In this document: positions 8,508-32,729 of the stretch, piece after piece
Layout of the letters: the number at the start of each line of letters is the position of its first letter
Position numbering within the stretch: position 1 is the stretch's first letter
Assembly (NCBI GenBank): GCA_028382965.1
Contig: JAOEUK010000016.1
Span: forward strand, 1 to 36,116
Source of the DNA: Candidatus Puniceispirillum sp.
GTDB lineage: Bacteria; Pseudomonadota; Alphaproteobacteria; Puniceispirillales; Puniceispirillaceae
Length of the DNA: 36,116 bases
Direction: 5' to 3'
The notes under the pieces: generated by a model
Database searches by the model: none
Told to the model about the DNA's origin: nothing
The model's input: only the letters and a program-made list of their open reading frames with translations
Position numbers and translations under genes: made by a program

Positions 8508-8521
8508 CCACTCTCTAGTGG
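8508..8521. repeat. Short inverted repeat upstream of formate dehydrogenase operon
   Basis: The bases CCACT, a four-base CTCT loop and AGTGG form a perfect five-base-pair dyad ending 19 bases before the fdh1B start and just ahead of its ribosome site. It could be a weak operator or 5'-leader hairpin. Its shortness makes chance occurrence quite possible. Confidence 0.25.
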
Positions 8522-8540
8522 TTTAAGAGAGGATATAGTT

Positions 8541-10232: not shown

Positions 10233-10239
10233 GGCTGTT

Positions 10240-13023
10240 ATGCTTGACTCAATGCCTTCAAAGACAATCACCCTAAAGTTAGATGGTAAAAATATTGAAG
10301 TGTCGGAAGGCACAACGATATGGGAGGCGTCTAAGGCTCATGGTACTCTAATTCCTCATCTTTGTCATAAGGCAGAGGAAAGTTATCGTTCTGATGGTAA
10401 CTGTCGGGCATGTATGGTCGAAATAGAAGGAGAACGGGTGCTTGCAGCATCGTGTGTTCGAACTGTTCAAGATGGCATGGTGGTTAATACCGCAACTGAA
10501 AGGGCAAAAAAATCACGCGCACTTGTGATTGAGCTTCTTGCGGCCGACCAGCCGGAAATATCGCATGACACATCATCACACTTTAGTCAGATGTCGGCGA
10601 TGACTGGAATTGAAGAGAGCCGGTTTCCAGCACGTGAGGTTTGTCATGTGCCACTTTTGGATGACAGCCATATCGCGATGAGCGTAAATTTAGATGCTTG
10701 TATTCACTGCAATCTTTGCGTCAGGGCTTGTCGTGAAGTTCAAGTTAATGACGTGATTGGGATGGCTGGTCGTGGTCAGGGTGCTCAAATTGTGTTTGAC
10801 ATGAATGACCCTATGGGGAAGTCAACTTGTGTGGCTTGTGGAGAATGTGTTCAGGCATGCCCTACAGGAGCGCTAATGCCTGCTTCAGTGCTTGATGATA
10901 AACAAGCTGGTGATAGTGAGGATTATGATCGTGAAGTAAAGTCAGTATGTCCGTATTGTGGTGTTGGTTGCCAGTTATCGTTTAAGATAAAAGACGATAA
11001 GATTAAATATGTTGAGGGTATTAATGGTCCGGCTAATGAAGGCCGTCTTTGTGTTAAGGGACGTTTTGGATTTGATTATGTTCACAATAATCATCGGTTA
11101 ACCAACCCTTTGATCAGACGTGATGACGCTCCAGCGAAAGGCCTCAATGTTGACCCGTCTAACCCCCTTTTGCACTTTAGGGAAGCTACTTGGGAAGAGG
11201 CGCTTGACATAGCGGCCAACGGTTTTAGTAAACATCGAGATGTTTCAGGAAAGCGAGTTGCAGGATTTGGTTCCGCTAAATGTTCAAACGAAGAAGCGTA
11301 TTTATTTCAAAAATTGATTAGGCAAGGCTTTGGTCACAATAACGTGGATCACTGTACTAGGCTTTGTCACGCTTCTTCAGTTGCGGCTCTGATGGAAAAT
11401 GTTGGCTCGGCAGCGGTGACAGCAACTTTCAATGAGATAAAAAATGCTGATGTGGCTATTGTTATTGGGGCTAATCCGACTGAAAATCATCCAGTTGCTG
11501 CAACTTATTTCAAACAATTTACTAAGCGTGGTGGCAAGCTGATTGTTATGGATCCGCGCGGACAAGGGCTAAAGCGTCATGCAACGCACATGCTTCAGTT
11601 TCGTCCTGGTGGTGATGTATCAATGCTTAATGCAATTATGAATGTAATTGTGGAAGAAAATTTATATGATCAACAATACATCGACACTTTTACTGAGAAT
11701 TGGGAGGAAATGAAGGCTCACCTGAAAGGTTTTCCACCTGAAAAAATGTCTGAGATTTGTGGGGTTGATGCTGAAACTCTTCGGGCAGTCGCTCGTGAAT
11801 TTGCAGGTGCAACATCTGCAATGATTTTTTGGGGAATGGGTGTTTCTCAGCACATCCATGGGACTGATAATTCGAGGTGTCTGATTTCGTTGGCTTTGAT
11901 GTGTGGACAAGTTGGTCGACCCGGAACTGGATTACATCCTTTGCGTGGACAAAACAACGTGCAGGGTGCATCAGACGCGGGAATGATTCCTATGTTTTTG
12001 CCTGACTATCAAAGTGTGACTGATGATGGAGTGCGGTCAGCATTTAGTGATATATGGAACTCAGAAAATATGAATGCTGAGAAGGGTTTGACAGTTACTG
12101 AAATTTTAGATGCTGTTCATGATGGTGACATCACGTCTATGTATATTCTCGGCGAAAATCCAGCAATGTCTGATCCTGATGTTGGGCATGCACGTGATGC
12201 ACTTGCCAAACTAGAACATTTAGTTGTTCAGGACATTTTCCTTACTGAAACCGCAAACTTTGCAGATGTGATCCTGCCGGCTTCGGCTTGGGCTGAGAAG
12301 ACAGGAACTGCAACTAATACAAATCGCCAGGTTCAGATGGGTCGTCCAGCTATTTCACCCCCGGGCGACGCCAGAGAGGATTGGTGGATCACCGTTGAAC
12401 TTGCAAAAAGATTAGGGCTTGATTGGGACTACAAACACCCCAGTGAAGTTTTTGCTGAAATGAAACTTTCAATGAAATCTCTTGAAAATATTACGTGGGA
12501 TAGACTTGAGAATGAAAGTGTGGTGGCTTACCCGTCTTTAAATGAGACAGATCCAGGGCAGCCCATAGTCTTTGGTGATGGCTTTCCGAGATATGAAGGT
12601 CGGGCTAAATTCACTCCTGCGAAAATTATTTCTCCTGCTGAAACTCCAGATTTAGATTACCCGTTTATTATGACTACGGGACGGCAATTAGAACACTGGC
12701 ACACTGGTTCAATGACACGTAGGGCTACCGTGTTGGACGCTTTAGAACCGCAAGCAAGCGCATCTTTGCATCCTAAAACTTTACGTAAATTAGGAGTTAA
12801 TGCCGGAGATATGGTTACAATTGAATCTCGGCGGGGTTCTATTTTAATTATGGCGCGTGAAGATCGTGCGGTGGCTGAAGACATGGTGTTTATACCATTT
12901 GCGTATGTCGAAGCAGCAGCAAATATGTTGACTAATCCTGTGGTTGATCCATATGGAAAAATTCCAGAATTTAAATTTGCTGCCTGCCGTGTTTTACCTG
13001 CTGCAGCGTTAGCTGCTGAATAG
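10240..13023 (+). CDS. fdh1A: Formate dehydrogenase catalytic alpha subunit (Mo/W-bisMGD)
   Basis: Catalytic subunit, 927 residues, oxidising formate to CO2 at a molybdenum or tungsten bis-pterin centre in the cytoplasm. The N-terminal NuoG-like [2Fe-2S] domain uses Cys42, Cys55, Cys58 and Cys72. Two [4Fe-4S] clusters follow, in CIHCNLCVRAC (154-164) and CVACGECVQAC (197-207). The molybdopterin domain starts with CPYCGVGC (237-244) plus Cys271. The catalytic ligand is Cys376, followed by His377, in CTRLCHASS, so this is a cysteine enzyme with no in-frame TGA. The C-terminal domain shows TTGRQLEHWHTGSMTRR. The H-x3-C-x2-C-x5-C cluster found in NuoG between the ferredoxin and 4Fe-4S regions is not seen. 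Seven bases separate it from fdh1B, with GAGG overlapping that gene's end as ribosome site. No fdhD or chaperone gene is adjacent. Confidence 0.94.
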   Translation: MLDSMPSKTITLKLDGKNIEVSEGTTIWEASKAHGTLIPHLCHKAEESYRSDGNCRACMVEIEGERVLAASCVRTVQDGMVVNTATERAKKSRALVIELLAADQPEISHDTSSHFSQMSAMTGIEESRFPAREVCHVPLLDDSHIAMSVNLDACIHCNLCVRACREVQVNDVIGMAGRGQGAQIVFDMNDPMGKSTCVACGECVQACPTGALMPASVLDDKQAGDSEDYDREVKSVCPYCGVGCQLSFKIKDDKIKYVEGINGPANEGRLCVKGRFGFDYVHNNHRLTNPLIRRDDAPAKGLNVDPSNPLLHFREATWEEALDIAANGFSKHRDVSGKRVAGFGSAKCSNEEAYLFQKLIRQGFGHNNVDHCTRLCHASSVAALMENVGSAAVTATFNEIKNADVAIVIGANPTENHPVAATYFKQFTKRGGKLIVMDPRGQGLKRHATHMLQFRPGGDVSMLNAIMNVIVEENLYDQQYIDTFTENWEEMKAHLKGFPPEKMSEICGVDAETLRAVAREFAGATSAMIFWGMGVSQHIHGTDNSRCLISLALMCGQVGRPGTGLHPLRGQNNVQGASDAGMIPMFLPDYQSVTDDGVRSAFSDIWNSENMNAEKGLTVTEILDAVHDGDITSMYILGENPAMSDPDVGHARDALAKLEHLVVQDIFLTETANFADVILPASAWAEKTGTATNTNRQVQMGRPAISPPGDAREDWWITVELAKRLGLDWDYKHPSEVFAEMKLSMKSLENITWDRLENESVVAYPSLNETDPGQPIVFGDGFPRYEGRAKFTPAKIISPAETPDLDYPFIMTTGRQLEHWHTGSMTRRATVLDALEPQASASLHPKTLRKLGVNAGDMVTIESRRGSILIMAREDRAVAEDMVFIPFAYVEAAANMLTNPVVDPYGKIPEFKFAACRVLPAAALAAE

Positions 13024-13236
13024 GGATATATGGCTTGGTAGCCGTCATATTGTAATTTTGTGGTACTACTGAAATATAAAATTGTAAAAAATTTACATTT
13101 TACTGATTTTCACTATTTCCCTCGCGTTATAATTTTCCTTATTGTTTAATAGTGCACTGTTATGGTCACGGTTTGGAGTGTAAAAGAGGTGCGTTTTCGG
13201 GGTAATTGTTTGCTACTGGCAGGGAGTTAAATAGAC

Positions 13237-14414: not shown

Positions 14415-15317
14415 TCAGCCTTTTAAAACTTCAACAAGTGTCACTCCCAGTTTAGCGGGTGAGGGTGAAACACGAACGCCCGCTGCCTCTAGTGCTGAGA
14501 TTTTTTCATCAGCCCCGCCTTTGCCTCCTGAAATAACGGCGCCAGCATGCCCCATTGTGCGGCCAGGAGGGGATGTGCGCCCTGCAATAAAGCCAACTAC
14601 TGGTTTTGAACGACCTTTTTTTGCTTCATCAATCAAGAACTGAGCGGCATCTTCTTCTGCTGATCCACCAATTTCACCGATCATTATGATTGACTGAGTT
14701 TGATCATCTGCAAGAAACATTTCCAGAACATCAATAAATTCTGTGCCTTTTACCGGATCGCCACCAATGCCAACAGCAGATGATTGGCCAAGTCCAACCA
14801 TTGATGTTTGATACACTGCTTCATAAGTCAATGTCCCTGAACGTGATAAAACACCAACTGAACCTTTACGGAAAATGCTCGGTGGCATAATTCCAATTTT
14901 ACATTCATTAGGCGTCATGAGCCCAGGGCAATTTGGTCCAATAAGACGTGATCTTGATCCTTCCAACTTTTCTTTTACTTTAACCATGTCTAGAACAGGG
15001 ACACCTTCAGTTATGCATGTTATTAATTCAATGCCTGCATCAATTGCTTCTTCAATGGCTGCTGCTGCGCCTGCGGGTGGAACGTAAATTACAGAGTTAC
15101 TTGCTCCAGTGATCTCCTTTGCTTCAGCAACCGTGCTGAAAAGGGGTAATTTATGGCCATCTGAACTAGCCCACACTTGACCTCCTTTCTTGGGATGCGT
15201 GCCTGCGACCATCTTGGTGCCGTGGTAAGAAAGCGCTTGTTCCGTATGAAAAGTACCCGTTTTACCAGTTAGGCCCTGCACAATTATCTTTGTGTCTTTA
15301 TTAATCAGTATTGACAT
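14415..15317 (-). CDS. sucD: Succinyl-CoA ligase alpha subunit
   Basis: ADP/GDP-forming succinyl-CoA synthetase alpha subunit, 300 residues, full length. The CoA-binding N-terminal domain contains [11 protein letters not shown], and [10 protein letters not shown] and [11 protein letters not shown] follow. The phosphorylated active-site His257 is in [35 protein letters not shown] and the close match to standard alphaproteobacterial SucD favour succinate over malate (the MtkB paralogues of methylotrophs diverge in these segments). It follows sucC by four bases on the reverse strand. No mdh, sucA or sucB genes flank it, unlike the usual alphaproteobacterial arrangement. In this oxalate setting it may exchange succinyl-CoA with CoA-transferases, which is inference. 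Confidence 0.92.
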
Positions 15318-15321
15318 CAGC

Positions 15322-16515
15322 TTAGCCTTTCACTGCTTTAACAATTTTTTTAGCGGCATCATCAAGGTCATCGGCAGCGATAACATTTAGTCCACTATTG
15401 TTGATAATGCTCTTTCCTTCATCAACCTTTGTGCCTTCAAGACGCACTACTAATGGAACATTTAGATTAATATCCTTAATTGCTTGCACGACGCCATTAG
15501 CGATCACATCACAACGCATAATGCCGCCAAAAATATTAACTAAAATCCCTTTTACGTTTGGATCAGCGGTAATGATTTTGAAGGCGGCAGTTACGCGCTC
15601 TGTTGTTGCGCTGCCGCCAACATCAAGAAAGTTTGCAGGTTCAGCACCATAAAATTTAATAATGTCCATGGTTGCCATGGCAAGCCCCGCCCCATTAACC
15701 ATACAGCCAATTTCACCATCAAGTGCGATATAGGCAAGGTCATATTTTGAGGCTTCAATTTCTTTTTTATCCTCTTCTGTCTCGTCGCGCAGCTCCATCA
15801 AATCTGGGTGCCGAAAAAGGGCGTTATCGTCAAAAGATACTTTAGCATCAAGAACTTGGATATTGTTTGATTTAGTGATAATTAATGGATTGATTTCAAG
15901 AAGACTCATGTCTTTGCTAACAAAAGCTTGATAGAGATTTTTGAATAGCGCTATTCCCTGCTGACGCGCACCATTGGTTAGGTTCAGCATATCTGCAAGC
16001 TTGCCTGCATCTGCATCTGTACAACCTTGGCTTGGACTAATGCTAACAGAATTGATCAGCTCTGGCGTTTTTTGAGCAACAGCTTCAATGTCCATGCCAC
16101 CCTCGGTAGATACAACAAATGATGCTCTCCCTGTTTCCCGGTCAACAAGGATGGACAAATATAATTCACGTTCAATATCGGCCCCCGCTTCAATGTAAAG
16201 CTGGTTAACTGACTTACCAATTGGTCCAGTTTGTTTGGTAACAAGAGTTTTGCCAAGCATTTCCTTAGCATTGAATAGCGCCTCGTCACTCGAGAGAGAG
16301 ACACGAACACCACCCTTAGCGTCAGATTTAAGTTCTTTGAATTTTCCTTTACCACGCCCACCCGCATGAATTTGGCTTTTTACCACGTAAACAGGTCCAG
16401 GCAATGAGGCAATTGCGGCTTTAGCTTGCTCTATATTGGTGATAGCGACGCCGGGCGCTATAGAGGCTCCAAAGTCTTGTAGAATTTTTTTAGCTTGATG
16501 TTCATGTATATTCAT
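15322..16515 (-). CDS. sucC: Succinyl-CoA ligase beta subunit
   Basis: ATP-grasp beta subunit of succinyl-CoA synthetase, 397 residues, the normal length. The N-terminus [12 protein letters not shown] is the family signature. [15 protein letters not shown] is the ATP-grasp nucleotide loop, and [18 protein letters not shown] and [10 protein letters not shown] lie in the C-terminal CoA-ligase domain that contacts the alpha subunit. The complex makes succinyl-CoA or ATP/GTP in the TCA cycle. An AAGGA ribosome site lies nine bases before the ATG. About 110 bases upstream is a perfect palindrome resembling a GntR-type operator, followed by a decayed GntR regulator on the other strand. Whether this is the organism's only sucCD or a second copy cannot be seen from the window. 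Confidence 0.92.
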
Positions 16516-17473: not shown

Positions 17474-19186
17474 ATGAATTCATCAGAGGAACGTGTGCTA
17501 ACTGACGGCTTTCACCTAGTGATAGACGCGCTTAAAATTAACGATATCAATACAATTTATGGTGTCCCTGGCATACCGATTACCGATCTTGGGCGAATTG
17601 CACAAGCAGAGGGGATGCGTGTAATTTCATTTAGGCATGAACAGCATGCGGGAAATGCGGCTTCAATTGCTGGTTATTTAACAAAAAAGCCGGGGATTTG
17701 TCTTACTGTTTCTGCGCCGGGTTTTTTGAATGGTCTCACTGCATTGGCAAATGCCACAACAAATTGTTTCCCTATGATTTTGATCAGTGGATCCTCTGAA
17801 CGTGAGATTGTTGACTTGCAACAGGGGGATTACGAAGAGATGGACCAATTGGCTATTGCTAAGCCTCTTTGCAAAGCAGCGTTCCGCGTTCTGCATGCTC
17901 AGGATATTGGGATAGCTGTTGCTCGTGCAATACGTGCAGCTGTTTCTGGGCGCCCTGGTGGTGTTTACCTCGACCTCCCTGCAAAATTATTTGCACAAGT
18001 TATGGATGCTGCTGAGGGACAAAAGTCGTTGATAAAGGTTGTGGATCCAGCCCCAAAGCAGATACCTGCAAAGGATGCAGTTCTCCGAGCGCTGGACGTT
18101 TTAAAAACTGCAAAGCGGCCATTGGTTATTCTTGGTAAGGGGGCAGCATATGCTCAAGAAGATGAAATTGTTCGTAACTTTGTAGAAAAGACAGGCATTC
18201 CCTATTTGCCAATGAGTATGGCTAAAGGATTGTTGCCGGATGATCACCCACTCTCGGCTGGGGCGGCAAGATCGCTGGTTTTAAAAGAAGCAGATGTGGT
18301 GGTTATGGTTGGTGCGCGTCTAAACTGGCTGTTATCGCACGGTAAAGGTAAGAGTTGGGGGCCGCCTGGTTCAAAACGATTTATTCAGGTAGATATTGAA
18401 CCTCGTGAAATGGATAGCAATGTTGAAATTGTTGCACCAGTGGTTGGTGATATTGGTTCCTGTTTGCTTGCATTAACTACTGCGATGAGTGACACATGGC
18501 CAGCTGTTCCAGATGGTTGGCTGGCTTCTATAAAGCAGCGTAAAGATGTGAATCTTGAGAGGATGTCTTCTAAGCTGCTCAGCAATGCTGTGCCAATGGA
18601 TTACCATTGCGCTCTTGGCGCGCTTCGCACAATTGTTAAACAGCGGCCTGATTCTATCTTGGTTAATGAAGGTGCAAACACACTGGACTTCGCACGGAGC
18701 ATAATTGATGTCTTTAAGCCGCGGAAGCGTTTGGATGTGGGTACATGGGGTATAATGGGTATCGGTATGGGTGCGGCAATCGCCGCGGCAATTGAAACTG
18801 GGGAAAGAGTATTGGCGATAGAGGGGGATAGTGCATTCGGTTTTTCAGGTATGGAGGTCGAAACAATATGTCGCTATAACCTCCCAATATGCGTGGTTGT
18901 CTTTAATAATAATGGCATTTATCGGGGGACTGACACAAACCCAACTGGCGGGGCTGATGTTGCGCCAACAGTTTTTGTCAAAGATTCTCGGTATGATCAA
19001 ATGATGACAGCATTTGGTGGTGTGGGTGTTTACGCTACTACCCCAGATGAACTGTCTAGGGCAGTTAATGAGGCAATGGATAGTGGAAAGCCTACTTTAG
19101 TAAATGCTATTATTGATGAAAATGCTGGTACAGAAAGTGGTCGTATCGGTAACCTTAACCCACAGAGTGTGGTTCCAAAAAAATAA
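17474..19186 (+). CDS. oxc: Oxalyl-CoA decarboxylase
   Basis: Thiamine-diphosphate enzyme converting oxalyl-CoA to formyl-CoA and CO2. Its 570 residues closely match the Oxalobacter enzyme (568). The conserved activating Glu56 is in RHEQHAG, and Tyr120-Glu121 (QGDYEEMDQ) and Tyr483 (NNNGIYRG) fall at the positions known for the active site. The ThDP/Mg motif runs from GDS at 451 to NNN near 478-480. The C-terminal [11 protein letters not shown] corresponds to the lid carrying the catalytic Ser and Arg. An AAGGAG ribosome site lies nine bases before the ATG. It begins the oxc-frc unit; the CoA-transferase start follows 42 bases after its stop. Together they form the oxalate dissimilation cycle. 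Confidence 0.96.
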
Positions 19187-19228
19187 TGCTATAAAATGGT
19201 ATATGCAGCACAATTGAAGGATAAAATA

Positions 19229-20488
19229 ATGAAAGCCCTCGAAGGTATAAAAGTTCTTGATTTTACTCACGTTCAGTCAGGCCCAACCTGTACCCAGCTC
19301 CTTGCCTGGTTTGGCGCTGATGTTATCAAGGTGGAACGTCCTGGAATTGGTGACGCGACTAGGAAACAGCTTGTTGACGTTGAGGGTGCTGACAGTCTTT
19401 ATTTTACTATGTTAAATCACAATAAGCGATCGATTGAGCTAAACTCAAAAAACGAGACAGGCAAAGAAATTTTAACTCGGCTTATTGAGACATGTGATGT
19501 TTTGGTTGAAAATTTTGCGCCTGGGGCTCTTGATCGGATGGGGTTCACCTGGGAGCGCATTCAAGAAATTAATCCGCGTATTATTTTGGCGTCGATTAAA
19601 GGATTTGGTCCAGGAAAATATGAGGACTGTAAGGTTTATGAAAATGTTGCGCAATGTGCAGGCGGATCGGCTTCAACAACTGGATTTCGTGATGGTCCAC
19701 CATTGGTGACAGGCGCTCAAATTGGAGATTCTGGTACCGGTTTACATTTGTGTCTTGGGATTGTGACTGCTTTGTTTCAGCGTGAAAATTCTGGTCATGG
19801 ACAAAAAGTCACGGCTGCAATGCAGGATGCAGTTTTGAACCTTGCACGTGTAAAATTGCGTGACCAGCAGCGTCTCGCTTCTGGTCCTCTAAGAGAGTAT
19901 TCGCAATTTGGTGAAGGAATTCCATTTGGCGATGCCACACCGCGCGCAGGCAATGACTCTGGAGGTGGGCAACCTGGTCGTATTCTCCGCTGTAAAGGTT
20001 GGGAACAGGATCCAAATGCGTACACTTATTTTATCATTCAGGCTGCTGTTTGGGAAAAGGTCTGTGATGTTATTGGTGAGCCAGAATGGAAGACTAAAGA
20101 AGGATATACCAAGCCACCACAACGCCTTGAAAAGTTAAATGAAATCTTTGAGCGTATTGAACAATGGACGATGACTAAGACAAAATTTGAAGTAATGGAT
20201 GCTTGCAATCCGATGGATATCCCTGTTGGGCCTATTTTGTCGATGAAAGAAATTTCTGAAGACCAAGGGCTATATAAGACTGGGACTTTGGTAAAGGTGG
20301 ATCATCCAGAGCGTGGCGAATACATATCAGTTGGTTGCCCTGTAAAATTATCAGATAGTCCAGCTCAAGTTCTGCGATCACCGCTACTCGGTGAGCATAC
20401 GAAAGAGATTTTGACTGATTTGCTTGGTTATTCTGGTGAAGAATTGACTAGAATTATTGAATCTGGAGCTGTCGGTGTTGTGAAGTAA
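19229..20488 (+). CDS. frc: Formyl-CoA:oxalate CoA-transferase
   Basis: Class III CoA-transferase moving CoA from formyl-CoA (or succinyl-CoA) to oxalate, giving oxalyl-CoA and formate in the cytoplasm. The N-terminus [41 protein letters not shown] and [12 protein letters not shown] are family hallmarks. The catalytic Asp167 is in [11 protein letters not shown], and the glycine loop GGGQPG, which covers the active site in Oxalobacter Frc, is present. The open frame extends back to 19196, but AAGGA seven bases before the ATG at 19229 and the homologues' N-termini support 19229 (419 residues). The gene sits directly behind oxc and 72 bases before the formyl-THF-hydrolase-like gene, suggesting one transcript. 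Confidence 0.95.
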
Positions 20489-20560: not shown

Positions 20561-21475
20561 ATGCGTATTGTACTCCATGGTCAGCAGGCTTTTGGTCAAG
20601 CCGTGCTGGAAAAACTTCTAGAACGGAATGAAAATATTGTCGCCGTTTGCAGCGCTCCAACAAAAGAGGGTAAGAAAGAAGACCCTTTGGTGGCATTTGC
20701 TCGAGAAAAAGGACTGCCAATTCACCAGCCAGCCTCATGGAAGACGCCAGAAGCTTTAAAACTGATGCAATCATTCGATGCTGATATCTGTATGATGGCA
20801 TATGTGCTTTTATTTATCCCAAAGGAAGTTTGCGATGCTCCAAAATATGGCACGTTTCAGTACCATCCTTCGTTGTGTCCGGATCACCGAGGCCCTTCTT
20901 CAATAAATTGGCCAATTGCAATGGGAAAGAAACGAACAGGATTGTCGATTTTTTGGCCCAATGACTGTTTAGATGAAGGTCCCATTATGATTCAGAAAAC
21001 ATGTGAAATAGGGGCTGACGAAACTCTTGGAGACGTTTATTTTAAGAAACTCTTTCCGATGGGTGTGGATGCCATGATTGAAGGGCTGGACCTCGTAAAA
21101 GCTGGTATGCTTATCAAACATGACCAGCGATTGGATTTTGGGTCCTATGAAAGCTGGTTTGGTAGAGAGGCTGCTGAGATTGATTGGTCTAGTCCGGTTG
21201 GTGATGTTTATAATCTTATTCGAGCCGCTAATCCTGCTCCTGGTGCATGGACAACATTTAATGGTAAAGAGCTTAAAGTTTATGATATTGCGTATGTTGA
21301 TGGTGCTGGTGATCCAGGTGTAGTGCTTTCAATAAATGAAAATGGGACAACCATTCAAGGTAATGGTGGGAGAATTATTTTAAAACGCGTTCGTCCGGTT
21401 GGTGGTGAAAAAATGACTTCCAAAGAGTGGGCAGAGGCTGAAGGCGTTGTTCCAGGGCAAAAGTTAGGGATTTAA
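20561..21475 (+). CDS. 10-formyltetrahydrofolate hydrolase-like protein
   Basis: A 304-residue formyltransferase-fold protein. The sequence resembles the N-terminal hydrolase half of 10-formyl-THF dehydrogenase (ALDH1L1) more than methionyl-tRNA formyltransferase. It has HGQQAFGQAV at the start, YHPSLCPDHRGPSSINW with catalytic-type His102 and Asn116, and Asp138 in CLDEGP. A C-terminal Fmt_C-like domain starts near 205 (INW/IDW-type segment, then NPAPGAWT). The aldehyde dehydrogenase half of ALDH1L1 is absent. Such proteins remove or transfer a formyl group from 10-formyl-THF. Next to oxc and frc it may connect formyl-CoA, formate and folate pools, which is inference. The ribosome site is AGGAG before the ATG. 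A start-tRNA formyltransferase role is unlikely given the context. Confidence 0.78.
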   Translation: MRIVLHGQQAFGQAVLEKLLERNENIVAVCSAPTKEGKKEDPLVAFAREKGLPIHQPASWKTPEALKLMQSFDADICMMAYVLLFIPKEVCDAPKYGTFQYHPSLCPDHRGPSSINWPIAMGKKRTGLSIFWPNDCLDEGPIMIQKTCEIGADETLGDVYFKKLFPMGVDAMIEGLDLVKAGMLIKHDQRLDFGSYESWFGREAAEIDWSSPVGDVYNLIRAANPAPGAWTTFNGKELKVYDIAYVDGAGDPGVVLSINENGTTIQGNGGRIILKRVRPVGGEKMTSKEWAEAEGVVPGQKLGI

Positions 21476-21826: not shown

Positions 21827-22828
21827 ATGAAGTCCATTAAAAGACTATTTTTCGGAGCTGTTGGTATCGCGCTAGCGGCGACGTCCTTTACAAATGTTGC
21901 GTTTGCTGGTTCACATGGCTGGCAGCCAACTAAACCGGTCAATTTCATAATTATGGCGGGGAAAGGCGGCGGAGCTGACAAAATGGCCCGGTTGATGCAA
22001 GCGATCGTAGAGGAAGAGAATCTTTCAAACCGTCCTCTTGTTCCGACAAACAAATCAGGTGGTTCTGGTGCGGAAGCACTTGTGGCTGCAAAGAATGCAA
22101 GTGATCCTGACCACACAATTATGGTCACATTGAATTCTTTTTTTACAACACCTCTAAGGAATCCAGGAATTAAGGTTGATATTCAGACTTTTGCACCAGT
22201 AGGAAGAATGGCAGAAGATACATTCCTTCTATGGGTCCACAAGGATTCTGGAATTACTTCATTTGAGCAGTTTTTAAAGCAAGCAAAGGCTGACGGCAGT
22301 AAATGGGTTATGGGTGGTACTGGCAAAAATTCTGAGGATAATATCATCACGGATCATCTAAATAAGGAATATGGGTTGAGTATTAAATACATTCCTTACA
22401 AAGGTGGCGGAGCTGTAGCCAAAGACCTTGCCGGAAAGCAGATTAACTCATCTGTGAACAATCCATCTGAAGCTCTTGGTTTTTATGACGCTGGAACTGT
22501 TGTGCCTCTTTTAGCATTCACTGACAAACGTCTTCCAATGTTCCCAAAAGTGCCTACTCTAGGTGAGGTTTTTGTAGGTGGAAAACAAGCTGCGTGGGCC
22601 TATTATATGCAGCGTGCAGTTGTTGGTGCTCCAGGAATGTCAGATGAGGCACTTGCGTACTACACTGACTTATTCACTAAAGTTTACAACTCGAAAAAGT
22701 GGCAAGCTTACAAAACAAAGAAATCACTAATGGGTGATTTCATGGCCGGCGATGAACTAAAAGCTTATTGGACAACTCAGGTTGACAACCACCGTGCAAT
22801 TTTGAAGGCCTCTGGCGCCATTAAATAA
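21827..22828 (+). CDS. tctC: Tripartite tricarboxylate transporter substrate-binding protein
   Basis: Periplasmic binding protein (Bug/TctC family), 333 residues. A Sec signal peptide occupies about residues 1-27 (positive SIKRLF, then an Ala-rich core, cleavage after AFA). The mature protein has the family segments PVNFIIMAGKGGGADKMAR, PTNKSGGSGAEAL and YIPYKGGGAVAKDL, and a typical ending. TctC captures a carboxylate and delivers it to the TctAB membrane pair, driven by ion gradients. It heads a complete tctC-tctB-tctA set. The ligand is unknown; placement after oxc and frc suggests oxalate or a related small carboxylate. Confidence 0.9.
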   Translation: MKSIKRLFFGAVGIALAATSFTNVAFAGSHGWQPTKPVNFIIMAGKGGGADKMARLMQAIVEEENLSNRPLVPTNKSGGSGAEALVAAKNASDPDHTIMVTLNSFFTTPLRNPGIKVDIQTFAPVGRMAEDTFLLWVHKDSGITSFEQFLKQAKADGSKWVMGGTGKNSEDNIITDHLNKEYGLSIKYIPYKGGGAVAKDLAGKQINSSVNNPSEALGFYDAGTVVPLLAFTDKRLPMFPKVPTLGEVFVGGKQAAWAYYMQRAVVGAPGMSDEALAYYTDLFTKVYNSKKWQAYKTKKSLMGDFMAGDELKAYWTTQVDNHRAILKASGAIK

Positions 22829-22865: not shown

Positions 22866-23396
22866 ATGCGTATTGCTGAAATTGTAACAGCGGTTTTGCT
22901 GGGAATTCTCTCGATATATTTAATGTGGAAATCAGGTGACCCACCATCATGGGATCCTGACGTTTCGCGCTTTGCAAATATTGGGTTTATTGAAGGTGAA
23001 GGACCTGGAAGTGGTTTTTGGCCGTTTTGGTTATCTGCCATTATGCTAGGCACTTCTATTTGGACAGGAATAAACTGGTACCACAGAAAAACCCCTGCAT
23101 CCCAATCTGACAAACCATTTCTTGACGGTCATGGTAAGCGTATGTTGCTTGTGGTTGGTGGAGGACTTTTTGGTTTTCTTGCATTGATTCATGTCGTTGG
23201 TTTTTATGGGGCTATCCCTATATTTATGATTTATTACATGAAATATTTAGGTAGTCACAGTTGGTCATTGACACTTGCTGTTAGTGGAACCTTGACAGTG
23301 ATTTGTTTTTTCTTCTTTGATATTGCTATGAGAATAGTCTTGCCAAAAGGCTATCTTGAACCTCTTTTTATACCGCTTTACGACATGTTTTTGTAA
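22866..23396 (+). CDS. tctB: Tripartite tricarboxylate transporter small membrane subunit
   Basis: TctB-family protein of 176 residues with about four predicted membrane segments (near residues 4-21, 55-74, 93-122 and 130-155). The loop between the first two contains FIEGEGPGSGFWPFW, the usual TctB motif G.GFWP. It is a membrane partner of TctA. The start lies 37 bases after tctC, and only a weak purine-rich site (GAGAGGG) precedes it. It is followed by tctA. Confidence 0.87.
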   Translation: MRIAEIVTAVLLGILSIYLMWKSGDPPSWDPDVSRFANIGFIEGEGPGSGFWPFWLSAIMLGTSIWTGINWYHRKTPASQSDKPFLDGHGKRMLLVVGGGLFGFLALIHVVGFYGAIPIFMIYYMKYLGSHSWSLTLAVSGTLTVICFFFFDIAMRIVLPKGYLEPLFIPLYDMFL

Positions 23397-23459: not shown

Positions 23460-24980
23460 ATGGATGTTATAATTTCTCTCTGGCAGGGAATACTGGTTGC
23501 GCTTGAACCTATTAATTTAGGTTTAGCAGTAATAGGAGTCGTTGTAGGTCTTTTTGTTGGTGCAATGCCTGGGCTTGGTTCGGTCAACGGTGTTGCTATT
23601 CTTCTTCCCTTTACCTTCGTTATTCAGAGTTTTACTGGTGGCGCAACGTCCCCGATGATTTTCCTTGCATCGATTTACTATGGGGCAATGTATGGTGGGG
23701 CAATCTCTTCAATAACCCTTGGCATACCTGGTGCATCTACCGCGGTTGCGACAACCTTTGATGGCCGGCCCTTAGCTCTTGCGGGAAAGGCTCACGTAGC
23801 TCTGGTGGTCGCTGCTCTTGCGTCTTTTGCCGGTGCTACTGTATCAAATTTGCTTTTTACTGGATTTGCGCCGCTACTCGCAGGAGTTGCTTTATCTTTT
23901 GGCAACCCAGAGATTTTTGCGTTAATGCTGCTAGCTTTTGCGACCTTTGTTGGCTTAGGGGGCGACGACATTCCTAAGACACTTTTTTCAATTTGCTTTG
24001 GGTTAGTAATGGCTACTGTAGGGTTTGACATTATTTCTGGCGAACCACGTTTGGTTTTTTTTGACATCACCGGATTTACGCATGGGATCCGATTTTTAGT
24101 TTTGGCGATTGGTGTTTATGGAATTGGCGAGATGATGTGGACAATAAACACATCACGGTCTGGGACAAACATGACCAAAGTTGATGTGACTTTTGCAAGT
24201 ATTTTTTATGCTATAAAACAGTTTAAACTTGCTTGGCGCGGCACTGCTATTGGTTCAGCTCTGGGGTTTTTTGTTGGAATTTTGCCTGCTGCTGGGGCAA
24301 CACCTGGTTCATTAATGGCGTATGGTATTGCAAAAATGACGTCAAAAAACTCTAAGGAATTTGGGAAGGGCGCACTTGATGGTGTATCAGCGCCAGAAGC
24401 TGCTAACAACTCGGCTTCGACTGGTGCAATGCTTCCAATGATGACTTTGGGGATACCTGGATCGCCAACGACGGCAGTTTTGCTCGCGGGAATGGTTATT
24501 TGGGGACTGCAGCCAGGTCCACTTTTGTTTACTGATCAGCCAGAATTTGTTTGGCCTTTGATTGGATCATTTTACATTTCAAATTTTGTTGCCGTTACGG
24601 TGAATTTACTTTTCATACCAGTGTTTCTTTGGATGCTTCGAATGCCATTTACGATATTGGCACCATTGATTTTTGTTTTGTCATTAGTGGGAACATATGC
24701 TGCTTACATGGACATGTTTGATGTCTGGCTGATGGTCTTATTTGGTGTCGGTGCATTTCTTTTAAGAATATTGGACTATCCCCTTGCACCAGCAGTGTTG
24801 GCTGTTGTGCTTGGTCCAATTGCAGAGCCAAAACTTCGCCAGTCTTTGCTACTTTCTGACGGGGATTTTTCGATATTCTTCACAAGGCCAATAGCGGGGC
24901 CAATAACTGTTATTGCTATAATACTGATATTATTGCCATTACTTACGTTAATTCGCGATAAGGTTAGAAAGTTGGCATAA
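23460..24980 (+). CDS. tctA: Tripartite tricarboxylate transporter large permease
   Basis: TctA permease, 506 residues with about ten to twelve hydrophobic helices. Family motifs are clear: VGAMPGLGSVNG, the repeat-like YYGAMYGGAISSITLGIPG with the DGRPLA sequence after it, and in the second half GILPAAGATPGSLMAYG, EAANNSASTGAMLPMMTLGIPG and LLAGMVIWGLQPGP. These two halves reflect the internal duplication of the family. It carries the ion-coupled transport step. Nine bases after its stop a strong terminator closes the operon. Confidence 0.93.
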   Translation: MDVIISLWQGILVALEPINLGLAVIGVVVGLFVGAMPGLGSVNGVAILLPFTFVIQSFTGGATSPMIFLASIYYGAMYGGAISSITLGIPGASTAVATTFDGRPLALAGKAHVALVVAALASFAGATVSNLLFTGFAPLLAGVALSFGNPEIFALMLLAFATFVGLGGDDIPKTLFSICFGLVMATVGFDIISGEPRLVFFDITGFTHGIRFLVLAIGVYGIGEMMWTINTSRSGTNMTKVDVTFASIFYAIKQFKLAWRGTAIGSALGFFVGILPAAGATPGSLMAYGIAKMTSKNSKEFGKGALDGVSAPEAANNSASTGAMLPMMTLGIPGSPTTAVLLAGMVIWGLQPGPLLFTDQPEFVWPLIGSFYISNFVAVTVNLLFIPVFLWMLRMPFTILAPLIFVLSLVGTYAAYMDMFDVWLMVLFGVGAFLLRILDYPLAPAVLAVVLGPIAEPKLRQSLLLSDGDFSIFFTRPIAGPITVIAIILILLPLLTLIRDKVRKLA

Positions 24981-24988
24981 AGTCACCC

Positions 24989-25014
24989 AAGGGGCACTTT
25001 GGTGCCCCTTTATT
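24989..25014 (+). terminator. Intrinsic terminator after tctA
   Basis: A perfect nine-base-pair stem (AAGGGGCAC with GTGCCCCTT) around the loop TTTG is followed by a T-rich stretch. It begins nine bases after the tctA stop, so it most likely ends the transporter transcript. Confidence 0.88.
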
Positions 25015-25041: not shown

Positions 25042-26817
25042 ATGGATAAAAAACGGTCTCTGCTTAGCGAAGATTTTCATGCTTGGAATCCGGGCTTAAG
25101 CTCTAATCTTCCTAAAAGGTTACTGCCTGTCATTTCATTATTTAGACCCGAAAACAGTGACATTGGCTATCAACAAGCAAAAGAAGCCGCTGATTTTTCA
25201 GGGCTCGCTGTTGAACAGTTATGCTCATTAAAGATAAATCGACTTGTTGTTCACGAAGTTTTGATTCGTGTTACCGCGGATTTGTCAGTTCCTGATGGAC
25301 CAAGCTATGAGTATCTTGGGTTGCAGATACGTGGAATGGTAGAGTGCATTTATAGTAATTACATGGTGCCAGAAATGGACACGATTTCACGTGGGTTTCT
25401 GGGGGTGCGCGAGCGTGCAGAACAAGAATTTGTTAAGCTTACTAATGAAGTTTTTTCCTTTAAGACAGTTGAAAAAAAATCAAGGAAAAAATTATTTGGT
25501 CTATTAAAACTGAAGGCTAAAAGTGTTCCAGTGATTGATGATCCACCGGAACTAAAAGCTTTGGATAATTTACGTGATCGTCTCTATAAATCAGATGATT
25601 TTTCTCGCGCATGTTTAACCGCAATAATTAAAGTTGTTAGTGGCATAATGGGAAAACAGGGACGTCTAGTCGCTGACCGATCGTTAATTGTAGAATTGGC
25701 TCTTCGCGTATTTTGTAATGATTATGGTAGCAGTAAGATAGGCCAATTGATTGCTCCTATTTTTACAAAGGCTGCTTTGGCGGAAGGTTACCAATTTTTG
25801 CCAGCACAATCAAAACCAATAGTGATGAATACTAAAGGAGCATCAGCTGCTGGCAAGAGCACAATTAGGCCACAGCAAAGGTATCTTGCAGAACGAATGG
25901 GCGTTCCATGGAAAGATTTTGCACTTATTAGTCCAGACTATTGGCGCAAATATTTGCTTGATTACAACTCTCTTGGGGATGATTTTAAGTATGCGGCAAT
26001 GCTCACAGGACGTGAGCTCGAATTTGTGGACAAAAAACTTGATCGTTATATGGCACAAAAATCTCATGAGAAAACTGTTCCTCACCTTTTAATTGATAGG
26101 TTCCGTTTTGATAGTTTCAAAATTGGAAGTGAAGGAGATTATAAAAGCACACTTCTCAGTCGTTTTGGATCTACTGTTTTTCTTTTTTTTGTTATCACAC
26201 CGCCATTTGCGACTGTTGATCGTGCCTGGAAAAGAGGCTTGACAACCTCTCGTTACAAAGCGGTTGATGATCTGCTTTATCATAATGTGGAAGCCTATAC
26301 GGGCATTCCTGAACTGTTCTTCTCGTGGACATCAATTAAAGATAAAAACATTTATTTTGAATTTTTAGATAATGATGTGCCGTTTGGTAAACTGCCCAAA
26401 ACAATTGCTTTTGGTTACAATGGTGCGATGACTATTCTTGACCCAGTAGGGCTTTCAAATATCGATCGATTTAAAGAGGTTAATATTGGGGCAACATGTC
26501 CAGAGGATGTTCTAAATCAAGATTGGACGCCGACTTATCAATTCTTGAGACAATGCATTAAAGTTTTACCAAAGGTGAAATTTGCTAATCAAGTGAATGC
26601 ACAAATTTATGGTCGGATTGAGCAGGGACAATGGGACTATAAAAACATGACTACAGTGCCGCAAGACGAAAACACTGTTGGCTGCCTGACAAACCTTGGC
26701 TGGGACCAACTTCCTCTTCCCGAGGCTCTTCCAATTGAAGAAATTAACATTCTTGAGGTAAAACGGATTACTCTGGGTGCCTGGGGAGAATCAGTGAATG
26801 TTGATAAACACGACTAA
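25042..26817 (+). CDS. Unrecognised large P-loop protein, possibly a zeta-like kinase
   Basis: I do not recognise this 591-residue protein. Residues 1-240 are mostly helical and charged, with a basic segment at 145-160 (KKSRKKLFGLLKLKAK). At 259-274 a hydrophobic strand PIVMNTKG leads into the Walker A motif GASAAGKST (266-274). LISPDYWRKYLLDY at 295-308 resembles the D-x(n)-R substrate region of zeta-toxin/AAA_33-type kinases. HLLIDRFRFDSF at 348-359 may be the Walker B strand. Arg/Lys residues in RAWKRGLTTSRYK (394-406) could form a lid. The C-terminal 170 residues match nothing I know. No signal peptide or membrane segment is evident. It starts about 30 bases after the tctA terminator with a GGAT-type site, so it is probably transcribed separately. 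A small-molecule or metabolite kinase is a guess; no antitoxin-like gene precedes it. Confidence 0.7.
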   Translation: MDKKRSLLSEDFHAWNPGLSSNLPKRLLPVISLFRPENSDIGYQQAKEAADFSGLAVEQLCSLKINRLVVHEVLIRVTADLSVPDGPSYEYLGLQIRGMVECIYSNYMVPEMDTISRGFLGVRERAEQEFVKLTNEVFSFKTVEKKSRKKLFGLLKLKAKSVPVIDDPPELKALDNLRDRLYKSDDFSRACLTAIIKVVSGIMGKQGRLVADRSLIVELALRVFCNDYGSSKIGQLIAPIFTKAALAEGYQFLPAQSKPIVMNTKGASAAGKSTIRPQQRYLAERMGVPWKDFALISPDYWRKYLLDYNSLGDDFKYAAMLTGRELEFVDKKLDRYMAQKSHEKTVPHLLIDRFRFDSFKIGSEGDYKSTLLSRFGSTVFLFFVITPPFATVDRAWKRGLTTSRYKAVDDLLYHNVEAYTGIPELFFSWTSIKDKNIYFEFLDNDVPFGKLPKTIAFGYNGAMTILDPVGLSNIDRFKEVNIGATCPEDVLNQDWTPTYQFLRQCIKVLPKVKFANQVNAQIYGRIEQGQWDYKNMTTVPQDENTVGCLTNLGWDQLPLPEALPIEEINILEVKRITLGAWGESVNVDKHD

Positions 26818-27791: not shown

Positions 27792-28145
27792 TTGACAGCA
27801 AAGACAAAACAGCCGGGTGTTAGAACGAAACTATTCATTGCAGAAGAAACCATTGGTATTGGCAAAATCAATTTGCTGTCAGTGCTTGGTGAGGTTGGTT
27901 CCATAAGAGGGGCGGCGCGTCAAATGAGTATGAGCTATCGACGTGCATGGTTTCTTCTTGATTCTATGCAAAGCGGTTTTTGTGATCCATTGTTTATAAC
28001 TGAGCGCGGTGGGTTAAGAAAGGGTGGTACAAAATTAACTCCCCTAGGTCATGATTTGATAAAGCGTTACCGAGCGCATGTTGATTGTGTGGACAATCAT
28101 TCTGTTGAAATCGTGGCTTGGCTGAAATCTGTGCAAATAGGGTGA
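27792..28145 (+). CDS. Single-domain ModE-like winged-helix regulator
   Basis: A 117-residue DNA-binding protein of the ModE N-terminal type (LysR-like helix-turn-helix). GKINLLSVLGEVGSIRGAARQMSMSYRRAWFLLDSM and TKLTPLGHDLIKRY carry the family signature (motif parts AARQMSMSYRRAW and LTPLG). The molybdate-binding domains of full ModE are missing. The start is a TTG at 27792, preceded by GGAGG at seven bases. Such short ModE-like proteins often lie beside molybdoenzyme genes, and this one opens the apparent formate dehydrogenase accessory block. It may respond to metal or oxyanion status through a partner or in another way; the effector is unknown. Confidence 0.85.
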   Translation: MTAKTKQPGVRTKLFIAEETIGIGKINLLSVLGEVGSIRGAARQMSMSYRRAWFLLDSMQSGFCDPLFITERGGLRKGGTKLTPLGHDLIKRYRAHVDCVDNHSVEIVAWLKSVQIG

Positions 28146-31146: not shown

Positions 31147-31185
31147 AGTATAGTCAAAAAATTGTTAGAAAAGAGTGAAATATCT

Positions 31186-31701
31186 ATGAAACTAGCGAGG
31201 ACAATTCGTTTTGATCGGTCTGACCTAAACGTGTTTCCGCGTGTGGCTGATGAAGGGGAGTGGGCGCTTGTTGGCACGTTTTGTTTTGCTGGTTTAGATG
31301 AGGAGGCTATTTCGGGTAAAGTAAAACAGGCGTTTAGCAATGGCTTCTTGGGGTTGCAATCATTTGGTTTTTCAACTTTGGTAAGTGTCGTAACATTGAA
31401 ATCTGATGAAATTAATAAGATTAAAATGCAACTTAGTGAGATTTTTATTAGTGAATTTGGAGCCCCTAACAAAACAGACGCAATGACTGCGGCAACCGAA
31501 GAAGTCAACTTTATGGCAGAACTTTGTGCTGGCCATGAAGTGGGAACTTTATTGGCTGTTCAGCGCAGTTGGGGAGAGAAAGGTATCAGTGAGTCTTTTC
31601 GAAGTCTTCCCAAATCTGATTCATGTGCGGAGCAAAAAATTTGGACAGTTGTTGATGAGGATGACACTTCCGCTATTGTCGAGACTAAGGTAGGAAAATA
31701 A
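31186..31701 (+). CDS. DUF6505 family protein
   Basis: A 171-residue protein beginning MKLARTIRFDRSDLNVFPR, then GEWALVGTFCFAG and later EEVNFMAELCAGHEVGTLL. I recall this as DUF6505, found near Mrp and DUF6352 genes. The open frame begins at a TTG at 31162, but the ATG at 31186 with a GAG site upstream and the family-like N-terminus is preferred. It has no signal peptide or membrane segment, and its function is unknown. It lies 39 bases after the DUF4444 gene and 38 bases before the DUF6352 gene. Confidence 0.7.
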   Translation: MKLARTIRFDRSDLNVFPRVADEGEWALVGTFCFAGLDEEAISGKVKQAFSNGFLGLQSFGFSTLVSVVTLKSDEINKIKMQLSEIFISEFGAPNKTDAMTAATEEVNFMAELCAGHEVGTLLAVQRSWGEKGISESFRSLPKSDSCAEQKIWTVVDEDDTSAIVETKVGK

Positions 31702-31739
31702 GCATTAAAAAATGGGCTTGATGGAGTGTGTGTAACGTA

Positions 31740-32729
31740 ATGATTAACGATTTTTGGTTAACATCGGGCTGGCATCTATTGGTTCGCGATGCTCATGGAC
31801 ATATGGTGCCAACTACAGACTTCATGCGAGCATACTTTATGCGAGAGGAGGTGGGTCCCGAAGAGGGATCATGTGCCGCGGAGCTTGCCCTTCATAAACG
31901 TCTTATTGAAGATCCGTTTGCAGCTGTTATGCCAACAGATTTATTTGAAATAGCTGATAAAGATGTTGTTCATAATTATCAGGCTGTTTTGAATTTTCGA
32001 AATTTTCTGGCTGGTCACCCTACCTTGGAATCGGCTTATATGGCGATGGCTCTTGATGCTCCACCTAAAATTCCTCCTTTGTTTTTTGAACAAATAACAC
32101 AAATCATCCTTCGCAACATTCTTGAGGGTGAAACTGATCCAATGCAGGTAAGGGCGGCTGAAATGCTATTTCGTAATCAGGTTGTGACGCTTGATGATGG
32201 CAGGATTATGGTGGCAGATCATGCAACTGTTCAGCTGCAGGTTGGTATAAAAAAAGCTGTCAAAGCGACAAAAGTATTGGGCGAAGTGCAAATTGACGTT
32301 CTAGCCAGTGAAACAGCAGATGAATACTGGTCGCGTTCGGATATGTTCAACACCTCAATTGATATAGCTTATACACAGCCTGCTCTTGACGGCCTTGCTC
32401 GGGTTCTAGAAAAATGGATTGCCCATTTTTTGCCTCTTTCAGTTCGAATCACGCCAATGATTAAGATAGAAGACGAAGCTTGGTCTTGGCATGTTGGTCT
32501 TGATGCTGAGGCGACTACAATTTTAAATGACCTTTATAATGGGAATGATGTGGATGATGATAGCTTGCAGCGTATTTTATGCTTGTTCAAGCTTGAAGTG
32601 GATAACGGGTTTGTTATTGAAATGACTGGTAAACCGGCGTATCTTGGGCTGGCAATGGATGTTGGCGGCGTTATAAAGATGAAACCTCAAAATATATTGG
32701 TAAATCTTCCAGTTATTGAGCCATCATAA
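31740..32729 (+). CDS. DUF6352 family protein
   Basis: A 329-residue soluble protein. The N-terminus INDFWLTSGWHLLVRD, then DFMRAYFMREEVGP and SCAAELALHKRL, match what I recall of DUF6352. The start is chosen at ATG 31740 from the conserved N-terminus; a GTG at 31728 lies too close to the GGAG site. No catalytic motif or Cys cluster is seen. It is the last rightward gene of the unit, ending about 70 bases before the convergent ferredoxin-like gene. Confidence 0.72.
   Translation: MINDFWLTSGWHLLVRDAHGHMVPTTDFMRAYFMREEVGPEEGSCAAELALHKRLIEDPFAAVMPTDLFEIADKDVVHNYQAVLNFRNFLAGHPTLESAYMAMALDAPPKIPPLFFEQITQIILRNILEGETDPMQVRAAEMLFRNQVVTLDDGRIMVADHATVQLQVGIKKAVKATKVLGEVQIDVLASETADEYWSRSDMFNTSIDIAYTQPALDGLARVLEKWIAHFLPLSVRITPMIKIEDEAWSWHVGLDAEATTILNDLYNGNDVDDDSLQRILCLFKLEVDNGFVIEMTGKPAYLGLAMDVGGVIKMKPQNILVNLPVIEPS

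What the first reader, a model, noticed from the sequence alone, without database searches (positions are those of the whole stretch)
25042..26817. Large unassigned P-loop protein with zeta-kinase-like features
GASAAGKST at residues 266-274 is followed by SPDYWRKYLLDY and a HLLID strand, the order seen in zeta-toxin/AAA_33-like kinases, but it is embedded in a 591-residue protein with a 240-residue helical N-terminus and an unknown 170-residue C-terminus. I recognise no family for the whole protein. This is the best candidate here for an undescribed enzyme.
Basis: partly seen in the sequence, partly recalled or inferred. Interest (0 to 1): 0.62.

Follow-up and report, generated by a model that had tools for sequence, protein, structure and literature searches.

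The report
Zeta-fold kinase in an oxalate-degradation locus
This bacterial gene encodes a large, uncharacterised protein built around the same kinase fold as the zeta toxins, but it sits with oxalate-breakdown genes and has no antitoxin gene next to it, so it is probably a working metabolic or regulatory kinase rather than a toxin.

Summary
In detail: a 591-aa ORF with the stated motifs. Zeta-type kinase homology holds: profile comparison with eight zeta proteins aligns 190 columns (probability 95.7), against nine P-loop residues for eight adenylate kinases (3.4). The residues aligned with zeta's catalytic Asp and two ATP-binding Args are invariant in 27 of 27 homologues. Fold searches rank zeta toxins and AvrRxo1 first. 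The helical N-terminal domain matched nothing convincing.

The gene follows oxc-frc-formyltransferase-tctCBA. Among 151 relatives it occurs in 22 and oxc in 25, both in 21. oxc/frc or tctA lie beside it in 26 of 34 context loci. Alphaproteobacterial copies keep the oxalate link (G480 excepted); three betaproteobacterial loci show none. No antitoxin-like partner was seen.

I read it as an ATP-dependent phosphotransferase serving oxalate/C1 metabolism, acceptor unknown. Fold and context are shown; catalysis, acceptor and role are inferred. New variant of a known kind: one homologue is already named 'zeta toxin family protein'; searches found no paper joining the two subjects.

The parts
25042..26817 (+). 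zeta-fold kinase-like protein, 591 aa ('T' in the report)
   Evidence: ORF; alignment of 27; hhalign to zeta proteins; fold
25114..25791 (+). N-terminal helical domain, residues about 25-250, no convincing fold match
   Evidence: separate model, mean pLDDT 79.8; Foldseek best E 0.2, VIA best Z 5.6
25837..25863 (+). Walker A / P-loop GASAAGKST, residues 266-274
   Evidence: G266, G271, K272, S273 invariant in 27 of 27
25930..25965 (+). SPDYWRKYLLDY, residues 297-308; D299 aligns with the catalytic-type Asp of zeta
   Evidence: invariant D299, R302; profile alignment
26083..26118 (+). HLLIDRFRFDSF strand and loop, residues 348-359; D352 aligns with the Glu of the zeta 'IIEG' strand
   Evidence: 352-359 invariant in 27 of 27; alignment
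26233..26256 (+). lid region, residues 398-405; R398 and R404 align with two Args of zeta
   Evidence: R398, R404 invariant in 27 of 27; alignment; zeta residue roles from PMC6356619 passages
17474..19186 (+). oxalyl-CoA decarboxylase (oxc)
   Evidence: NCBIfam PRK09259 and TIGR03254 over cut-off
19196..20488 (+). formyl-CoA transferase (frc)
   Evidence: NCBIfam TIGR03253 over cut-off
20561..21475 (+). formyltransferase-like protein
   Evidence: Pfam Formyl_trans_N and Formyl_trans_C; below the TIGR00460 cut-off
21827..22828 (+). tctC, tripartite tricarboxylate transporter receptor
   Evidence: Pfam TctC
22866..23396 (+). tctB
   Evidence: Pfam TctB
23460..24980 (+). tctA
   Evidence: Pfam TctA
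24989..25010 (+). terminator-like hairpin between tctA and T
   Evidence: 9 pairs, 6 G-C; a hairpin at the same place in the nine same-genus sequences, modest pair support

Best explanation
T is an active ATP-dependent phosphotransferase with the zeta-toxin/AvrRxo1 kinase fold, recruited to oxalate (C2/C1) catabolism. Inferred mechanism: Lys272, Ser273 and Thr274 hold the ATP-Mg phosphates; Asp352 helps place Mg; Arg398 and Arg404 close over ATP; Asp299 activates a hydroxyl of the acceptor, which takes the gamma-phosphate. The acceptor is most likely a soluble, perhaps nucleotide-type, metabolite rather than the cell-wall precursor UDP-GlcNAc. The helical N-terminal domain probably gates or senses, so that the kinase acts when oxalate-derived metabolites are present. 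Shown: P-loop kinase homology, the conserved catalytic-type residues, and the oxalate context. Inferred: activity, acceptor, role of the N-terminal domain, and direct participation in oxalate use.
For: hhalign of 27 T proteins with 8 zeta proteins: probability 95.7, E 8.7e-9 for this single comparison, 190 columns; with 8 adenylate kinases: 3.4, 9 columns. Zeta_toxin is listed for 23 of 27 members at E<=1. Foldseek PDB: PezT 2p5t E 1.7e-4, zeta 3q8x E 5.2e-4; VIA: AvrRxo1 Z 9.7 (rmsd 4.8, 256 aligned), zeta 3q8x Z 8.7 (rmsd 4.9, 217 aligned). K272, D299, D352, R398, R404 invariant in 27 of 27. Co-occurrence with oxc: 21 of 22 T genomes among 151 relatives; 5 of 6 among 385 of the class; 9 of 12 handles, of which G480 was also in the class sample. 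Neighbours: tctA in 21, oxc in 17, frc in 17, at least one in 26 of 34 context loci. No antitoxin-like partner gene seen.
Against: No acceptor is identified. Three betaproteobacterial loci (G860, G989, Azoarcus plasmid) show no oxalate genes nearby; G860 has no oxc, the Azoarcus plasmid has none and its chromosome was not searched, G989 was not searched for oxc. 15 of 20 oxc genomes of the class lack T, so T is not needed for oxalate use in general. Relatives are not independent, so the Fisher p-values (1e-20; 1.3e-6; outside the own genus 0.0055) overstate. G000 has a MOFRL glycerate kinase, so T does not fill that gap. The Zeta_toxin Pfam model is not specific: it passes its cut-off in 158 of 190 class genomes and 13 of 14 controls. 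The model is mediocre (pLDDT 64.9, P-loop under 50) and the Foldseek TM-scores of the top rows are low (0.39-0.44 by target length).
Confidence: 0.5

Rival explanations
1. T is a regulatory kinase: its zeta-type domain phosphorylates a protein (enzyme or transporter) of the oxalate pathway, or makes a phosphorylated signal, under control of the N-terminal helical domain.
For: Large N-terminal domain without a convincing fold match; T closes the oxc-to-tctA run; a terminator-like hairpin before T in the genus suggests lower dosage than the transporter; many oxc genomes lack T, as expected of an accessory regulator; in Azoarcus T overlaps by 7 bases the next gene, whose product has GntR and aminotransferase domains.
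Against: The zeta-fold kinases in the papers seen here act on small molecules (passages of PMC5923241, PMC5087710, PMC6356619). Where tctA and T are 6-12 bases apart there is no room for the hairpin.
Confidence: 0.22
2. T is an EzeT-like single-chain toxin-antitoxin: a zeta kinase held in check in cis by its N-terminal domain, acting as a growth-stopping switch.
For: Zeta fold; EzeT precedent of an N-terminal cis-antitoxin (PMC4803016 passages); helical N-terminal domain.
Against: Linkage to catabolic genes and presence that tracks oxc; no PADLOC row for any of 27 members at E<=1; no relative found in the phage records or viral contigs searched. The EzeT antitoxin part is 82 residues, here the extra part is about 250.
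Confidence: 0.13
3. T is a P-loop ATPase or a degenerate kinase with a binding or chaperone role and no phosphotransfer.
For: No activity is known; the P-loop is poorly modelled.
Against: Five zeta residues that matter for activity (K46, D67, E116, R158, R171; PMC6356619 passages) have aligned invariant counterparts in 27 of 27, with Asp for Glu at one (the matching is my reading).
Confidence: 0.1
4. The oxalate link is a passenger effect: T is a generic kinase that happens to sit in these loci.
For: The three betaproteobacterial loci lie elsewhere; G480 has a T without oxc.
Against: The link holds in several alphaproteobacterial families with different neighbours and transporter genes; among 126 relatives without oxc only one has T.
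Confidence: 0.05

Closest known systems
zeta toxins (epsilon/zeta, PezT; Pfam PF06414)
   Same: kinase fold, P-loop, catalytic-type Asp, acidic residue on the third strand, two lid Args
   Different: 591 aa against 219-342 aa in the eight zeta-family proteins compared; extra N- and C-terminal parts; no antitoxin gene seen; linked to oxalate genes; window protein below the Pfam cut-off
AvrRxo1 (zeta-fold kinase reported to phosphorylate NAD at the 3' hydroxyl; PMC5491322 and PMC5087710, passages)
   Same: best VIA rows, Z 9.6-9.7; P-loop followed by a catalytic Asp
   Different: secreted effector with a small Arc1 partner gene (PMC4938570 passages); about 10% identity in the structural alignment; no evidence here that T uses NAD
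EzeT (single-chain zeta toxin-antitoxin; PMC4803016, passages)
   Same: N-terminal region before a zeta kinase domain in one chain
   Different: its antitoxin part is 82 residues, T's N-terminal part about 250; sequences not compared here
Azoarcus sp. KH32C AZKH_RS25960 'zeta toxin family protein' (WP_172642523.1)
   Same: homologue over 92% of the length at 33.9% identity
   Different: lies beside gabT and aldehyde dehydrogenase genes and a GntR/aminotransferase protein, with no oxc on that plasmid

Membership tests
zeta-type P-loop kinase fold family | GxxxxGK[ST] Walker A followed by a catalytic Asp after strand 2 | tested here: met
   266-274 and D299; invariant in 27 of 27, aligned to zeta
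zeta-type P-loop kinase fold family | two lid Args that contact ATP | tested here: met
   R398 and R404 invariant and aligned to zeta Args; contact with ATP itself not tested
zeta-type P-loop kinase fold family | nearer to zeta than to another P-loop kinase family | tested here: met
   hhalign zeta 190 columns against adenylate kinase 9 columns; fold ranking, where gonococcal zeta1 (Z 7.1) ties with the best adenylate kinase (Z 7.1). Only one other kinase family was used as control
Pfam PF06414 Zeta_toxin | score above the gathering cut-off, 22.3 bits | tested here: not met
   window protein 14.5 bits; of 10 homologues scanned with scores only Azoarcus passes, 25.3, and 4 have no Zeta_toxin row
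epsilon/zeta toxin-antitoxin system | cognate antitoxin gene adjacent | tested here: not met
   61 bases between tctA and T, touched only by ORFs of 26 and 38 aa that overlap the neighbouring genes; between T and the next ORF only ORFs of 27 and 29 aa; no shared small partner among ORFs of 90 aa or more in the contexts
epsilon/zeta toxin-antitoxin system | phosphorylates UDP-GlcNAc or UDP-MurNAc | not testable with these tools
   needs an enzyme assay
epsilon/zeta toxin-antitoxin system | toxic when unopposed | not testable with these tools
   needs expression
EzeT-like cis-antitoxin | N-terminal domain related to the EzeT or epsilon antitoxin | tested here: inconclusive
   no convincing match of the N-terminal model in PDB; EzeT sequence not fetched
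AvrRxo1 / 3'-NAD kinase | NAD 3'-phosphorylation | not testable with these tools
   only fold similarity
AvrRxo1 / 3'-NAD kinase | Arc1-like small partner gene adjacent | tested here: not met
   no adjacent ORF of about 100 aa; homology to Arc1 not searched
oxalate catabolic locus | oxc and frc over NCBIfam cut-offs in the same gene run | tested here: met
   TIGR03254, PRK09259, TIGR03253

The most novel reading that the evidence does not exclude
A zeta-fold kinase was domesticated in Alphaproteobacteria as a dedicated component of oxalate/C1 catabolism, phosphorylating a metabolite or cofactor whose phosphorylated form is unknown in this pathway: a metabolic, non-toxin role for a type of kinase that the papers seen here describe as toxins and an effector.
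Probability: 0.4. Interest if true: 0.7.

Novelty: new variant of a known kind. Interest (0 to 1): 0.47.

Why it matters
Zeta-type kinases are described, in the papers seen here, as toxins and an effector that poison cells by phosphorylating a core metabolite. A large conserved member tied to oxalate degradation would give the fold a non-toxic role, would suggest an unrecognised step or control point in oxalate and formate metabolism, and would warn that the database label 'zeta toxin' may mislead for this branch.

Tried and rejected
Glycerate kinase replacement (oxalate assimilation can pass through glycerate; recalled pathway knowledge): dropped as a gap-filling idea because G000 has a MOFRL glycerate kinase. 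Phage or defence origin: tblastn of the phage records none; viral contigs gave 85 pattern stretches, none a relative; PADLOC no row at E<=1 for 27 members. PDB sequence search with the protein and with the profile: only chance-level rows. Zeta_toxin as a genome query: 178 of 190 class genomes ring at E<=0.001, 158 of them over the cut-off, and 14 of 14 controls ring, 13 over the cut-off; I did not identify those proteins, but a model that rings this widely is not specific, so I lean on neither the sub-cut-off scores nor the single pass in Azoarcus. N-terminal domain fold search: VIA best Z 5.6, Foldseek best E 0.2; this does not show a new fold. BFVD: four zeta-labelled viral proteins at E 4.2e-5 to 5.0e-4.

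Literature (titles, abstracts and full text of the open library; subscription papers mostly not held): no paper holds oxalate + zeta toxin + oxalyl-CoA decarboxylase, oxalate + tripartite tricarboxylate + oxalyl-CoA decarboxylase, zeta toxin + kinase + metaboli + 'not a toxin', or oxalate + frc + oxc + gene cluster + kinase + alphaproteobacteria. Searches were read as listings only (12 of 701 listed; 15 of 10,225). Passages, not whole papers, were seen of PMC5923241, PMC4803016, PMC5087710, PMC4938570, PMC6356619, PMC5491322 and PMC13131673. The last, a 2026 preprint, says genes involved in zeta toxins rise under formaldehyde in Methylobacterium extorquens; whether T is among them I could not tell.

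Rows left out: of 28 collected T sequences L005, read as 649 aa, was left out of A1. One search scanned 10 of the 27. A5 uses 8 of the 9 zeta ORFs printed, themselves from a few of the loci. A8 uses 8 of 10 adenylate kinases. A6 holds the 9 same-genus stretches of the 19 printed. In one search no T was called in L023 (an ORF-picking artefact; one search finds it).

Full report
Observation. The ORF 25042-26817 is open for 591 codons and carries the quoted motifs at the quoted residues. For the window protein no Pfam or NCBIfam model passes its cut-off, PADLOC lists nothing and the PDB sequence search gives only chance-level rows. The best Pfam row is Zeta_toxin at 14.5 bits, cut-off 22.3, over residues 247-331.

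Family. The protein has long homologues. Among 151 relatives 22 genomes match, two of them only by fragments (G015, G084). Among 385 genomes of the class 6 match, and among 398 of the phylum 5. Four plasmid records match: Methylobacterium bullatum, Skermanella rosea, Skermanella mucosa and Azoarcus sp. KH32C. Four named contigs match: Rhodobacteraceae, Amylibacter, Silicimonas and an unclassified alphaproteobacterium. In the order of G860, 2 of 145 match. I infer that the class is Alphaproteobacteria, because its member G416 branches beside the Methylobacterium bullatum copy. Presence is patchy: the matches among the 151 relatives fall in 5 of 35 genera.

Kinase domain. In 27 aligned proteins the segment 255-430 is the best conserved part: mean majority fraction 0.79 and 40 of 176 positions invariant, against 0.60 for residues 25-140 and 0.39 for the tail 531-591. 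Zeta_toxin is listed for 23 of 27 members at E<=1. Of 10 members scanned with scores, 6 have a Zeta_toxin row, only Azoarcus passes the cut-off (25.3 bits, residues 256-410), Methylobacterium reaches 21.5 and 4 have none. That model rings very widely (158 of 190 class genomes over its cut-off), so I tested specificity otherwise. hhalign of the T alignment with eight zeta proteins gives probability 95.7 over 190 columns; with eight adenylate kinases 3.4 over nine columns, the P-loop alone; zeta with adenylate kinase 87.4 over 117 columns. In one search, K272, D299, D352, R398 and R404 of T fall on the P-loop Lys, the Asp after strand 2, the acidic residue of strand 3 and two lid Args of zeta. 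In zeta K46, D67, E116, R158 and R171 are reported to be needed for toxicity and ATPase activity (PMC6356619, passages). Matching them to T is my reading of the alignment.

Fold. AlphaFold2 with five sequences (mean pLDDT 64.9, pTM 0.67; P-loop 266-274 under 50) gives a P-loop kinase core. Foldseek against PDB: PezT 2p5t E 1.7e-4 and zeta 3q8x E 5.2e-4 are the only rows at E<=0.001, with low TM-scores. VIA-align: AvrRxo1 entries Z 9.6-9.7 (rmsd 4.5-4.8, 250-256 aligned), zeta 3q8x Z 8.7 (rmsd 4.9, 217 aligned), 1gvn 8.1, 2p5t 7.8, gonococcal zeta1 7.1; the best adenylate kinase also reaches 7.1, the others about 5-6.6. The tool warns that Z under 8 may be only a common arrangement. The N-terminal domain folded alone is helical and more confident (pLDDT 79.8), without a convincing PDB match (Foldseek best E 0.2; VIA best Z 5.6).

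Context in the window. oxc 17474-19186 and frc 19196-20488 (both over NCBIfam cut-offs), formyltransferase-like 20561-21475, tctC, tctB, tctA, then T, all on the + strand. Upstream, 8541-13023 has the domains of an NAD-linked molybdenum formate dehydrogenase and 14415-16515 those of a succinyl/malate-CoA ligase (the names are my inference from the domains). I read this as an oxalate-to-formate-to-CO2 and C2-assimilation neighbourhood (pathway knowledge).

Context elsewhere. In 34 context loci, by tblastn with identity thresholds, tctA is found in 21, oxc in 17, frc in 17, and at least one of them in 26. The eight without: two same-genus loci cut by contig ends close to T (L046, where a formate-THF ligase piece precedes T, and L047); two Skermanella plasmids, which carry oxlT about 8 kb away and oxc elsewhere on the plasmid; G480; and three betaproteobacterial loci (Azoarcus, G860, G989). 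From the coordinates, 13 of the 21 genomes with both genes have T and oxc on one contig, 2.5-8.5 kb apart; in the other 8 they are on different contigs. Co-occurrence among 151 relatives: both 21, T only 1 (G001, 70% complete), oxc only 4 (one, G011, 59% complete), neither 125; Fisher p 1e-20. Class of 385: both 5, T only 1 (G480), oxc only 15, neither 364, p 1.3e-6; outside the window's genus 2 of 3, p 0.0055. None of these is corrected for relatedness. Of 12 T-holding handles 9 have oxc; the three without are G480, G860 and the Azoarcus plasmid.

Results against. 15 of 20 oxc genomes of the class lack T. The betaproteobacterial copies show no oxalate link; in the tree they group apart (100/100), but the root is a midpoint and the program warns of long branches there. 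G480 has T in two overlapping frames and no oxc: a decaying copy or a sequencing error. So T is an accessory of alphaproteobacterial oxalate loci, not a core oxalate enzyme.

Toxin reading. No antitoxin-like partner was seen: 61 bases separate tctA from T, touched only by ORFs of 26 and 38 aa that overlap neighbouring genes, and between T and the next ORF there are only ORFs of 27 and 29 aa. EzeT shows that an 82-residue N-terminal part can quench a zeta toxin in cis (PMC4803016, passages), so a single-chain toxin is not excluded, but the catabolic linkage argues against it.

Regulation. In nine same-genus sequences 57-61 bases separate tctA and T and hold a hairpin, terminator-like in the window (24989-25010), weaker in L007 and L008. 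Pair counts: 88.6% of cells paired, two pairs with changes on both sides, which 53 of 500 shuffles equal; support is modest. In five members of another family (L014, L016, L017, L018, L020) tctA and T are 6-12 bases apart, which suggests one operon. I infer that in the window's genus T is made at a lower dose than the transporter.

Verdict. The finding is real and the zeta-like kinase reading is right. I commit to an ATP-dependent phosphotransferase in oxalate/C1 metabolism, acceptor unknown (0.5). It works like a zeta-type kinase; on the features tested it is not part of an epsilon/zeta toxin-antitoxin pair.

Noticed in passing
window 24989-25010 and same-genus loci: Terminator-like hairpin between tctA and T, kept in position in nine same-genus sequences; no room for it where tctA and T are 6-12 bases apart.
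   Followed up: partly
G480:C1:183671-185463 (L033, L034): T is split into two overlapping frames in a genome without oxc: decaying copy or sequencing error. Described only.
   Followed up: no
window 20561-21475: Formyltransferase-like ORF between frc and tctC, found in 13 of 34 context loci, below the cut-offs for methionyl-tRNA formyltransferase; its substrate in an oxalate locus is unclear.
   Followed up: no
L039, L041, L044, L045, L049, L050, L051, L052, L053, upstream of tctC: These loci carry a formate-THF ligase and a Usp-domain protein before tctC; the window, L040, L042 and L043 lack both there.
   Followed up: partly
window 27792-28145: Short ORF with a ModE-type domain below its cut-off, downstream of T, in a locus with a molybdopterin enzyme.
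   Followed up: no
window 31162-32729: Adjacent DUF6505 and DUF6352 proteins after a biotin/lipoate ligase-like gene, kept in order in several same-genus loci.
   Followed up: no
L028 (Azoarcus plasmid) 8444-13089: T lies between gabT and a gene for a GntR/aminotransferase protein whose start overlaps T's end by 7 bases: possibly a different role in Betaproteobacteria.
   Followed up: no
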